IMG/VR virus record: IMGVR_UViG_3300010042_000012
Span: 1-47,145 of that record
Reading direction: 5' to 3' (one strand)
Origin: a virus
DNA: 47,145 bases
Shown in pieces: positions 1-47,145 of this stretch (its first letter is position 1; each line of letters opens with the position of its first letter). A program made the position numbers and the translations under genes. The notes beneath the pieces are model-generated. The model was given only the letters and a program-made list of their open reading frames with translations, was not told the origin of the DNA and searched no databases.

Positions 1-374
1 ACCCACAACTGTACTGCTTTTCTTTCAAAAACTCGGACGCGGCCATTTGGAATTCGTTTCCGCAATCGCAGTGAATCAACCATAGCGATTTCTTTCCGTC
101 TGAACCGGCGTATTTTACAGCGGTTAAAAAATGTATCTTTATGCCTGCTAAGTCCCTCGCTCTGTGGTGCATTTTTCCAACCATTTTCAGTTAATATTAA
201 GTGATCTTCAGTTAATCTGACCCCGTCTATAGTTACAGTGTTATTAAATCCTTTTTCGATTAATCCTTCATGGTGTACCCAGTCTAAACCGTCCCATAAA
301 AGCATGTCAGAGCAAACATTTACCAGAGGCAACCAACCATAATTAGTAAGTACCAAAGTATCTCCGGCTAAGCA
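1..374 (-). other. Hint (intein-type) domain inside the DNA polymerase, N-terminal part
   Basis: From Cys634 (codon 374-372) the polymerase frame switches to a Hint fold. Block A reads CLAGDTLVLTNYGW, with the nucleophilic Cys1. Block B reads RLTEDHLILT, with the Thr-x-x-His pair (His691) that assists the N-S acyl shift. About 66 basic residues follow before the window ends, so the C-terminal blocks with the terminal Asn and any homing endonuclease lie outside. The resemblance is to the phage group annotated as 'Hom_end-associated Hint'. The position, just after the conserved KLVEN of the polymerase, is typical of inteins, which favour active-site motifs. Protein splicing is inferred, not shown. 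Confidence 0.82.
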
Positions 375-2273
375 ATTCTCAACCAATTTTCCCCCATATG
401 TGTCCTCGGCTTTCCACTGCCGGGTCTGCTGATCCAGACCATCATAAACTACATGTGATACCGTTCTTACTGGTTTTTTCTTAGCCGCCTCAGTAGTTAC
501 CATAAATGGTAGCCTGCGCCTTTGTTTAAAGTTTACGTATTCGTAGATCGGTGTTTCCGGGTCTTCTGCATACTCGGCCAGGATTGCAGGATCTTTAGTT
601 CGAACGGCCTCATAGGTCACGTGTATAATCCTTGGATTGATATAACAAAGGCAACGGCCAGACGGTAGTTTTATCTGCAGCCTTTTTTCTTCTACCCATA
701 TTTCCAGGCCGTTCACTTCGAAAACCGATTTAGGCTTATTAATTGCTTGAAATACTGCTTCCTGAACATCGTCCCAAAGCTGAGTGATATTAGGGTTTGC
801 CGCGCGCCACTGTTTTATAATTTCCTTCATGCGCTTCTTCGACAAACCCATCTTGTCACCACCCATTTTTTCTAAAGCCCCTACGCCGCCCTGATAGCCA
901 CAGGCGAGTTCCGCTACCTTACCGATCGCGCGGAGGTAGTAGTTTTCCATACCCTTGGCGATCGTTTCCAGAGGCACATTAAACATCGTACTGGCAGAGG
1001 CTTCGTAGATCTTTCCATGAGTATTAAAAACGTCAAGACGCCATTTTTCACCAGCAAGCCAGGCAATGACACGGGCTTCGATCGCTGAAAAGTCCGATAC
1101 AATAAATTCCTTCCCTTTACCGGCTACGAACGCGGTCCTGATCAGCTGCGAAAGTGCATCGGGAACATTGCCGAACATAATTTCCAGCCCTTCACCGTCA
1201 CCATTGATAACGCACTGCCTGGCTATATCCAGATCGTCTATTCCTTTGTCGTGATCGACCATAAGGAAATTCTTCGGCAGGTTTTGGGGTTGTATCAGCC
1301 TGCCGCCCCATCGCCCGGTACGATTCGCACCGTAGAACTGAAATAAGCCACGGACACGCTGCATTGCACCTACGCAAAGCGTCATAGCCGTATACTTTTT
1401 AATCGAGGTCTTCGACGTTTCCTGCCGGATCTCAAGAACGCGGCGGCTGTCCGGGGAAAGATCAGATCCCTTTAATAACTCCGTAACAGTTTCCTTTTTC
1501 AGATCAGGGACAGATTCGCCCTGACGCTCCAACCATTCCAGGACTTGCGGACCTGAATTCATGTTCTGAATACCTGAGATCTTAAACGCTTCTGCATCGA
1601 GTTTTGTAACGTACTCCGCATTGATACGGATCGCGTTATTGACGATTCCCATATCTAATTCGATCCCCCTTTGGTTGATGATCTGGTCAATATTCCAGAG
1701 TTCGGTTTCGTCTGCCGGAACAGGAATATGCAAGACTTTATCTCGGATTGAAGTCTCTACGACAACATCTTGCACACAGTAGGATTTATACAGCTTCCAC
1801 ATATCGGGGGCGTGCTGCGGCAGATTCCGGGTACGCATACCGTTCACCTTCGTAGGCTTGCAAGGTGTGGAAAAGTAAACAATTAGCTTCTTTCCTTCGG
1901 TCATTTTCTCCTGTTCCAGCCCCATTGCCTTAGCAGTCGCCCCTAAGTTCATCGGCCAGCCAGCCCGAGCCGCCCGGATCATAGTACAATCCCAATGAGC
2001 CGGATCGAGCTGTACCCCTAAATGTTTCGACAAACAGGTAATTTCAAAATTAGCATTATAGGCTGTCTTCAATACGGCAGGATCCAAAATGGCCTGACGA
2101 ATATTAGTAGGCAGGTTGACTTCAGTGAGATCATACATTCGTACCAGCTGATTGTCTACCTTGCAGGCAGCCATGAGTATTTCGAAATCAGGTGATTCTA
2201 CATACTTATAAACCCCGGCATACTTTATGTCAACGCTGCTGAAGGTTTCAATATCAATCGAAAGTACTTTCAT
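1..2273 (-). CDS. polA-like: Family A DNA polymerase (phage type), interrupted by a Hint/intein domain; 3' end outside window
   Basis: Replicative DNA polymerase with proofreading. The reading frame is open from an ATG at 2273 to the window edge (757 complete codons). The N-terminus carries the DnaQ-type exonuclease signature DIET (Asp7, Glu9). Palm motif A is DFSAIEARVIAWLAGE, with Asp394 as a metal ligand. The O-helix-like stretch GKVAELACGYQGG lies about 60 residues later. The conserved segment YGGKLVEN (ending at residue 633) normally runs into a Gln-Ala/Gly-Arg-Asp stretch, but here it is followed directly by CLAGDT, the start of a Hint domain. Motif C (His-Asp-Glu) is not present before position 1 and would have to follow the insert outside the window. 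The start overlaps the stop of the 73-aa gene by ATGA, indicating translational coupling. The family assignment is secure; whether the polymerase is spliced or split is not known. Confidence 0.93.
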   Translation of the reverse strand, partial: MKVLSIDIETFSSVDIKYAGVYKYVESPDFEILMAACKVDNQLVRMYDLTEVNLPTNIRQAILDPAVLKTAYNANFEITCLSKHLGVQLDPAHWDCTMIRAARAGWPMNLGATAKAMGLEQEKMTEGKKLIVYFSTPCKPTKVNGMRTRNLPQHAPDMWKLYKSYCVQDVVVETSIRDKVLHIPVPADETELWNIDQIINQRGIELDMGIVNNAIRINAEYVTKLDAEAFKISGIQNMNSGPQVLEWLERQGESVPDLKKETVTELLKGSDLSPDSRRVLEIRQETSKTSIKKYTAMTLCVGAMQRVRGLFQFYGANRTGRWGGRLIQPQNLPKNFLMVDHDKGIDDLDIARQCVINGDGEGLEIMFGNVPDALSQLIRTAFVAGKGKEFIVSDFSAIEARVIAWLAGEKWRLDVFNTHGKIYEASASTMFNVPLETIAKGMENYYLRAIGKVAELACGYQGGVGALEKMGGDKMGLSKKRMKEIIKQWRAANPNITQLWDDVQEAVFQAINKPKSVFEVNGLEIWVEEKRLQIKLPSGRCLCYINPRIIHVTYEAVRTKDPAILAEYAEDPETPIYEYVNFKQRRRLPFMVTTEAAKKKPVRTVSHVVYDGLDQQTRQWKAEDTYGGKLVENCLAGDTLVLTNYGWLPLVNVCSDMLLWDGLDWVHHEGLIEKGFNNTVTIDGVRLTEDHLILTENGWKNAPQSEGLSRHKDTFFNRCKIRRFRRKEIAMVDSLRLRKRIPNGRVRVFERKAVQLW

Positions 2274-46977: not shown

Positions 46978-47145
46978 CTATGCTGTGTACATTTCTATAC
47001 GTGCTTTCACTGCCTGCATAAGTTGTTCTTGTCCCCAAGCCTTTTGATATAACCCTTTTACAACGTCTTCGTCGAACGTTCCTTCGCAGACGATATGTGT
47101 ATTCACGACAGATATTTTCTGCCCCTGACGGTCCAGTCTCGCCAC
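46978..47145 (-). CDS. SNF2-type DNA helicase, C-terminal end only (partial)
   Basis: The last 55 codons of a larger gene entering from the right edge, ending at a TAG (46980-46978). ARLDRQGQK is helicase motif VI of SNF2 proteins (arginine finger region), followed by VVNTHIVCEGTFDEDVVKGL and QEQLMQAVKARIEMYTA, the typical C-terminus of phage SNF2 helicases. The ATPase domain lies outside. It should remodel or unwind DNA in replication. The start and length cannot be judged. Confidence 0.88.
   Translation of the reverse strand: MARLDRQGQKISVVNTHIVCEGTFDEDVVKGLYQKAWGQEQLMQAVKARIEMYTA

What the first reader, a model, noticed from the sequence alone, without database searches (positions are those of the whole stretch)
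1..374. Intein-type Hint domain inside the phage DNA polymerase, directly after the conserved KLVEN motif
The frame is open through the junction: polymerase motifs up to residue 633, then Cys634 CLAGDTLVLT and RLTEDHLILT (His691). The usual next polymerase residues are missing, so the polymerase is either spliced, split, or ended by a Hint domain. In many relatives the residue after KLVEN is not Cys/Ser/Thr, so the C-extein nucleophile would have to be checked. If it does not splice, this would be a non-splicing Hint that regulates or matures the polymerase.
Basis: partly seen in the sequence, partly recalled or inferred. Interest (0 to 1): 0.75.

Follow-up and report, generated by a model that had tools for sequence, protein, structure and literature searches.

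The report
Phage intein hiding an out-of-frame endonuclease
A phage DNA polymerase gene is interrupted by a protein-splicing element (intein), and the same stretch of DNA, read one base out of step, begins a homing-endonuclease gene; more than a hundred related phage inteins are built in the same overlapping way.

Summary
The polymerase frame (minus strand) runs from KLVEN into a Hint domain (Cys634, TEDH/His691) and is open to the contig end. The window is the whole record, so nothing lies left of position 1. Relatives supply the rest: 40 inteins at this EN|C junction are all followed by Cys, and the same-site examples end ...VHN before the polymerase resumes (CVQAIARD, CTQAVARD). At its edges it is an ordinary splicing-type intein.

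The unusual part was missed. From base 172 the same DNA encodes, in the +1 frame, an HNH homing endonuclease. Of 150 distinct related inteins, 134 carry it out of frame (82 in +1, 52 in +2), none in frame. Substitutions switch from polymerase codon position 3 in the Hint part to endonuclease codon position 3 in the overlap. The polymerase-frame linker is predicted disordered and drifts like an unused frame, yet contains no stops. The endonuclease start codon is kept while the overlying polymerase residue changes. Eight relatives look like split inteins around the nested endonuclease.

The nearest published case found (ShiLan, 2025) is an out-of-frame HNH insert without a splicing domain. Splicing, endonuclease translation and cleavage are inferred, not shown.

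The parts
375..2273 (-). N-extein: family A (phage) DNA polymerase residues 1-633, ending YGGKLVEN
   Evidence: 45-51% identical to intein-free phage polymerases, which continue with other residues after EN
111..374 (-). N-terminal half of the intein (HintN): Cys1, VWDG-type block, TEDH block. Extent taken from the L015 model, residues 1-88
   Evidence: Sequence, profile hits, model and fold search of same-site relative L015
3..110 (-). Polymerase-frame linker of the intein, predicted disordered in relatives; open to the contig end
   Evidence: L015 model residues 89-262 pLDDT under 50
2..172 (-). 5' part (57 codons) of the HNH homing endonuclease gene, +1 frame relative to the polymerase, start ATG at 172-170 (MHHRARDLAGIKIHF...); Zn-ribbon CDCG motif; runs off the contig
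   Evidence: PHROG 374, profile 70.9 bits, tblastn to APSE and Caulobacter phage inteins E 3e-13 to 5e-12, substitution pattern

Best explanation
The window holds the first 374 bases of a mobile intein in a phage family A DNA polymerase gene, at KLVEN|C. Read in the polymerase frame, the element makes a continuous polypeptide: HintN, a long structureless linker, then HintC ending VHN, followed by a Cys that starts the C-extein. The Hint halves fold together and splice the polymerase. Read one base out of step from an internal start codon inside the HintN 'GWK-N-A' motif, the linker DNA encodes a separate HNH homing endonuclease that copies the element into empty polymerase genes. The splicing protein and the endonuclease are thus two different proteins sharing one stretch of DNA. 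Shown: the two overlapping coding signals, the HintN half, their conservation in relatives. Inferred from relatives: the missing C-terminal half. Inferred from family knowledge: splicing, endonuclease translation, cleavage and homing.
For: Hint; the model of same-site relative L015 aligns to the Mtu RecA intein at Z 16.6, 1.7 A over 116 residues, with a linker of pLDDT about 33 at residues 89-262. Splicing residues: C1 150/150, HN 146/150, +1 Cys 146/150; at this site +1 Cys 40/40 occupied and 0/68 empty. Out-of-frame HNH: 134 of 150 inteins, 0 in frame; in the set found with the Hint query alone, 69 of 84 out of frame, 0 in frame. Polymerase frame kept open: 5.3 stops expected per HNH core under synonymous reshuffling, 11.2 seen in the third frame, 0 in the polymerase frame; the absence in this set is partly by selection of open frames, but frame-broken cases are only about 8. 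Window alone: 4.0 expected, 0 seen, P 0.007; third frame 6. Codon-position switch: 17 independent pairs, HNH positions 284/218/734 (+1 class) and 193/114/422 (+2 class), HintN at polymerase position 3 (127/95/309); window against L015: overlap 34/15/8 at polymerase positions 1/2/3, Hint 25/13/48; amino-acid identity in the overlap 0.36 polymerase frame, 0.71 HNH frame, 0.35 third frame. Start codon kept in 34 of 40, 11.7 expected from synonymous codon use, while the polymerase residue varies over D, S, R, N, C, H, I, Y. HNH frame matches PHROG HNH families (E 1.6e-62 for L015). One frame change on a tree of 118 HNHs.
Against: The window stops after 57 HNH codons and before HintC, so the rest is by analogy. 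No translation, splicing or cleavage data. The Shine-Dalgarno-like sequence before the start is no better than the protein motif forces (32 against 29.7 expected, P 0.08). In the endonuclease core the first His of the classic motif is Arg (LDRxDN; alignment to I-HmuI, E 0.46), so catalysis is unproven. The start codon is less clear in the +2 class (12 of 21 at the commonest position). The HNH structure could not be predicted (the service did not answer).
Confidence: 0.86

Rival explanations
1. Split intein: the polymerase frame ends a little beyond the contig edge, the HNH gene overlaps, and HintC plus the polymerase C-terminus are a separate, translationally coupled ORF; the polymerase is made by trans-splicing.
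For: Eight relatives are built like this. Two are at the same EN|C site (L044, L128), with the HNH stop and the HintC start overlapping as ATGA.
Against: In those two the polymerase frame stops 84 and 89 codons into the intein; in the window it is open for at least 124. About 37 of 39 same-site elements with an HNH are contiguous.
Confidence: 0.07
2. A ribosomal frameshift fuses HintN to the HNH, so that the overlap is one intein-endonuclease protein made by slippage (the window has TGG AAA AAT G at the junction).
For: A short A run at the junction in the window and in GB2A.
Against: The run is not conserved (L015 has TGGCGTGATG); the RTG start is. A fusion ending in the HNH frame would lack HintC, and HintC is back in the polymerase frame.
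Confidence: 0.03
3. A group I intron that carries an HNH gene, removed from the RNA (as the Sodalis phage SO-1 record states for its relative).
For: GenBank note 'type I self-splicing intron' on SO-1 gp38/gp39; such introns with out-of-frame HEGs are common.
Against: No Rfam match to an intron in the window or five relatives; intein blocks and Hint fold; the host frame is open across about 300 codons; Cys at +1.
Confidence: 0.01
4. The overlap is an artefact: an indel error in the contig, or decay of an in-frame endonuclease.
For: One contig, no reads at hand.
Against: The same architecture recurs in 134 distinct inteins including finished phage genomes (GB2A, APSE-1, SO-1, ST3), with the frame fixed by clade and both frames under constraint.
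Confidence: 0.02
5. A non-splicing Hint that cleaves or regulates the polymerase, as the first reader suggested as an alternative.
For: HintC cannot be seen in the window.
Against: Same-site relatives all keep HN|C and a resumed polymerase; endonuclease-free mini-inteins persist at these sites.
Confidence: 0.01

Closest known systems
Inteins of phage DNA polymerase I-like genes: Hamiltonella phage APSE-1 P45, Caulobacter phage GB2A gp056, Sodalis phage SO-1 gp38, jerseyvirus ST3, EBPR siphovirus 2, Streptococcus phages Javan113 and Javan422
   Same: Same polymerase family, same Hint family, same nested out-of-frame HNH where it is intact; the closest full elements at the exact site are metagenomic (L015, L022, L039, L097)
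   Different: The named isolates use neighbouring sites (GGKL|CEN, GK|CELG, ELA|CGYG), not KLVEN|C; records mostly annotate only 'DNA polymerase'
ShiLan element in mycobacteriophage DNA methylases (PMC11855218)
   Same: HNH endonuclease encoded out of frame with the host gene, host frame open through the insert, patchy distribution
   Different: ShiLan lacks splicing motifs and an intein fold by its authors' own tests; here there is a Hint with conserved splicing residues
Classical large inteins with an in-frame endonuclease, such as the HNH intein of the cyanophage CL131 dCTP deaminase (PMC6293099)
   Same: Hint plus HNH, mobile, in a phage nucleotide or replication gene
   Different: There HintN and the HNH_3 domain lie in one polypeptide; here the endonuclease is a separate protein from another frame
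Fractured genes / split inteins with an endonuclease gene between the halves (Dassa et al. 2009, NAR; from memory, paper not held)
   Same: Eight relatives have HintN and HintC on separate ORFs with an endonuclease between them
   Different: Here the endonuclease is an HNH that overlaps the HintN frame; the 2009 cases, as recalled, used another endonuclease family

Membership tests
Intein | Cys/Ser/Ala at intein position 1 | tested here: met
   Cys634 in the window; Cys in 150/150 relatives
Intein | TxxH block (N3/B) | tested here: met
   TEDH, His691; T55, D57, H58 invariant in A1
Intein | C-terminal His-Asn (HN) and C/S/T at +1 | tested here: inconclusive
   Lies beyond the contig end for the window; in relatives HN 146/150, +1 Cys 146/150 and Ser 2/150
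Intein | Hint (HINT/hedgehog-intein) fold | tested here: met
   Tested on same-site relative L015: model residues 1-88 and 265-302 confident, Mtu RecA intein Z 16.6, 1.7 A over 116 residues
Intein | Uninterrupted host protein once the insert is removed | tested here: inconclusive
   Relatives yes; window truncated
Intein | Protein splicing | not testable with these tools
   Needs expression and mass spectrometry
Large intein with in-frame endonuclease domain | Endonuclease in the same reading frame as HintN and HintC | tested here: not met
   HNH is +1 in the window; 0 of 134 relatives in frame
ShiLan-type insertion | Out-of-frame HNH in an open host frame | tested here: met
ShiLan-type insertion | No splicing domain | tested here: not met
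   Hint present
Split intein | HintN and HintC on separate ORFs | tested here: inconclusive
   Polymerase frame open for 124 codons to the contig end; split relatives at this site stop at 84 and 89
HNH endonuclease | Sequence match to HNH families | tested here: met
   PHROG 374: window fragment E 7e-10, L015 E 1.6e-62
HNH endonuclease | Catalytic H-N-H residues | tested here: inconclusive
   Core not in the window; in relatives the DH of I-HmuI aligns with DR while the Asn is kept (weak alignment, E 0.46)
Group I intron | Catalytic RNA core | tested here: not met
   No Rfam match in the window or in five relatives at gathering scores

The most novel reading that the evidence does not exclude
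A widespread phage intein class has divided its two jobs between two reading frames: the splicing protein in the host frame and the homing endonuclease overprinted out of frame. There are two old lineages fixed in +1 and +2, and the arrangement has given rise to split inteins, because the nested endonuclease already has its own start and its stop can couple to a HintC start (ATGA).
Probability: 0.7. Interest if true: 0.82.

Novelty: new variant of a known kind. Interest (0 to 1): 0.72.

Why it matters
Textbook large inteins carry their endonuclease as a domain of the intein polypeptide. Here the endonuclease is a separate protein overprinted on a linker that only has to stay open. This removes the folding conflict between splicing and endonuclease, lets either part decay alone (endonuclease-free mini-inteins, one intein with a stop only in the HNH frame), and offers a simple route to natural split inteins. 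It also explains why these elements go unnoticed: neither part reaches Pfam or NCBIfam cut-offs, and records label the region only 'DNA polymerase' or call it an intron.

Tried and rejected
Reading left of position 1: impossible, the window is the whole record; the right end of the window encodes the C-terminus of a helicase, not the rest of the polymerase; an exact-match scan with a 25-base piece of the window's own overlap found no second copy. Single-protein searches of viral contigs with the polymerase or the Hint fragment found nothing; an eight-member alignment was too diverse for patterns. A Shine-Dalgarno signal before the nested start: not above what the TEEGWK protein motif gives. 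Group I intron: rejected. Single indel error: rejected by recurrence. Apparent similarity of the polymerase-frame linker to APSE-1 (RFRRKEI): a by-product of the conserved HNH frame, since polymerase-frame identity equals that of the unused frame. Structure of the HNH protein: not obtained. Literature: ten searches; no held paper describes a splicing intein with an out-of-frame endonuclease; subscription papers and preprints are not held, so priority is not settled.

Full report
What was checked. The window is a complete 47,145-base linear virus record. On its minus strand a family A DNA polymerase gene runs off the left end (2273..3, 757 codons). A tblastn of this Hint segment against GenBank phages found 195 records, nearly all inside genes called DNA polymerase.

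What the full relatives look like. Eight phage records were read in full. Their inserts begin with Cys and end VHN or VAHN, the next residue is Cys, and the polymerase resumes. The polymerase frame is open throughout. Translating the inserts in the other frames showed an HNH endonuclease in frame +1 (GB2A, APSE-1, Javan113) or +2 (SO-1, MR14, EBPR2, ST3); Javan422 has a short insert without it. In the window the +1 frame from the ATG at 172-170 reads MHHRARDLAGIKIHFLTAVKYAGSDGKKSLWLIHCDCGNEFQMAASEFLKEKQYSCG. This matches the same HNH in APSE and Caulobacter phages, where the records list only the polymerase.

A larger set. Scans of viral contigs with the Hint alignment and with the two HNH alignments gave about 190 loci. 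Profiles for HintN, HintC and HNH run on all six frames gave 150 distinct contiguous inteins; 134 carry a strong HNH match, 82 in +1, 52 in +2, none in frame. The set found through the Hint alone, which has no bias towards HNH frames, gave 42 in +1, 27 in +2, 9 short inserts without HNH, 6 without a contiguous HintC, and none in frame. The frame follows the HNH lineage: a tree of 118 HNHs needs one change of frame, between two fully supported groups, but 24 changes of insertion site (quick tree); a tree of the Hint parts needs 3 and 24. The +1 group sits at GGKL|CEN, GGK|CVEN, KLVEN|C and in two sites of helicase-like genes (gene identity judged by eye); the +2 group sits at GK|CELG and ELA|CGYG.

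Same site as the window. Forty inteins lie at EN|C, among them L015, L022, L039 and L097 with KLVEN. All have Cys at +1, whereas 68 polymerases with that site empty have I, V, L, A, F, T or D there; intein-free Fusobacterium and Bacteroides phages have ENIVQA and ENVVQA.

Evidence that both frames matter. (a) In 17 independent pairs, changes in HintN fall at polymerase codon position 3, and in the overlap at HNH codon position 3. The window shows the same switch against L015: 25/13/48 in the Hint, 34/15/8 in the overlap, by polymerase position; amino-acid identity in the overlap is 0.36 in the polymerase frame, 0.71 in the HNH frame and 0.35 in the third frame. The linker's own sequence is therefore hardly selected. 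(b) The linker nevertheless has no stops: reshuffling synonymous HNH codons gives on average 5.3 stops per HNH core in the polymerase frame, and the third frame really has 11.2; for the window's 57 codons 4.0 are expected and none seen (P 0.007), with 6 in the third frame. The relatives were collected as open frames, so their openness is partly by selection; the frame-broken cases found alongside number about eight. (c) The HNH start codon lies in the Hint motif GWK-x-A. In 34 of 40 it is RTG or TTG although x is D, S, R, N, C, H, I or Y; 11.7 would be expected from synonymous codon use (nominal P 1.6e-18, not corrected for relatedness). (d) Where the HNH is broken or deleted, the polymerase frame stays open: the second intein of L010 has a stop in the HNH frame only, and mini-inteins of 120-168 residues persist.

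Structure. AlphaFold2 on the L015 intein gives confident residues 1-88 and about 265-302 and an unstructured stretch 89-262 of pLDDT near 33, which is the part whose DNA encodes the HNH. The structured part aligns to solved inteins: Mtu RecA intein Z 16.6, 1.7 A over 116 residues; gp41-1 Z 16.1. Sequence profiles also meet the Nanoarchaeum polymerase intein and PI-MtuI. Single sequences stay below the Pfam and NCBIfam cut-offs, which explains the missing annotation. The HNH protein has a Zn-ribbon-like N-terminus and helix-turn-helix-like C-terminus (weak Pfam hits), as homing endonucleases often do; its core reads LDRxDN where I-HmuI has VDHKD, so cleavage should not be assumed.

Split relatives. 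In L044, L047, L093, L128, L146, L153, L177 and L195 the polymerase frame stops 84-161 codons into the insert, the HNH overlaps it, and HintC begins a further ORF carrying the rest of the polymerase. In L044 and L128, at the window's own site, the HNH stop and the HintC start overlap as ATGA. These look like natural split inteins derived from the nested form. Direction and trans-splicing are inferred.

Comparison with what is known. The closest published finding is the ShiLan element, an HNH read out of frame inside a phage methylase, whose authors found no splicing motifs or intein fold. The cyanophage CL131 dCTP deaminase intein has its HNH in frame. No held paper describes a splicing intein with an out-of-frame endonuclease. 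GenBank annotators marked an overlapping HNH in APSE-1 (P46) and SO-1 (gp39), in SO-1 as an intron, so the ORF itself has been seen; the interpretation offered here was not found. Subscription papers and preprints could not be searched.

Verdict. The window contains an authentic, truncated intein of a phage polymerase whose homing endonuclease is overprinted in the +1 frame. It is a new variant of a known kind. The part inside the window is short, and everything past base 1 rests on relatives.

Noticed in passing
L044, L047, L093, L128, L146, L153, L177, L195: Same HintN and nested HNH, but the host frame stops and HintC plus the rest of the polymerase is a separate ORF; likely natural split inteins. 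L146, L153, L177 and L195 use another polymerase site near the GRW/SG motif with Ser at +1.
   Followed up: partly
L010:4364-6612: One polymerase with two inteins of the two different frame classes; the second has a stop in the HNH frame only. Compared with APSE-1 (empty first site), flanking identity drops near the junction and is complete further downstream, as co-conversion would leave.
   Followed up: partly
L002 (SO-1 gp38/gp39) and L004 (APSE-1 P45/P46): Public records annotate the overlapping HNH as a separate CDS; SO-1 notes it as a type I self-splicing intron, which the data here do not support. Most other records show only DNA polymerase.
   Followed up: yes
L193: A Salmonella-type member with a frameshift in the linker that puts the HNH in frame with HintN, and a stop near the intein start; sequencing error or decay.
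   Followed up: no
window 46979-47145 (-): The right end of the record encodes the C-terminal 55 residues of a phage DNA helicase (PHROG 62 E 8e-9); the missing piece of the genome probably holds the rest of the intein, the polymerase C-terminus and the helicase.
   Followed up: partly
L028, L033, L052, L061, L068, L092, L135, L156, L161, L162: The same nested-HNH inteins occur outside the polymerase, in what look like helicase-type genes (CGxVY and CLQxA junctions); host genes were not identified by search.
   Followed up: no
L205 (Burkholderia phage BcepMigl) and Lactobacillus phage phig1e: Apparently free-standing relatives of the nested HNH, next to replication genes in BcepMigl; candidates for the source of the endonuclease.
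   Followed up: no
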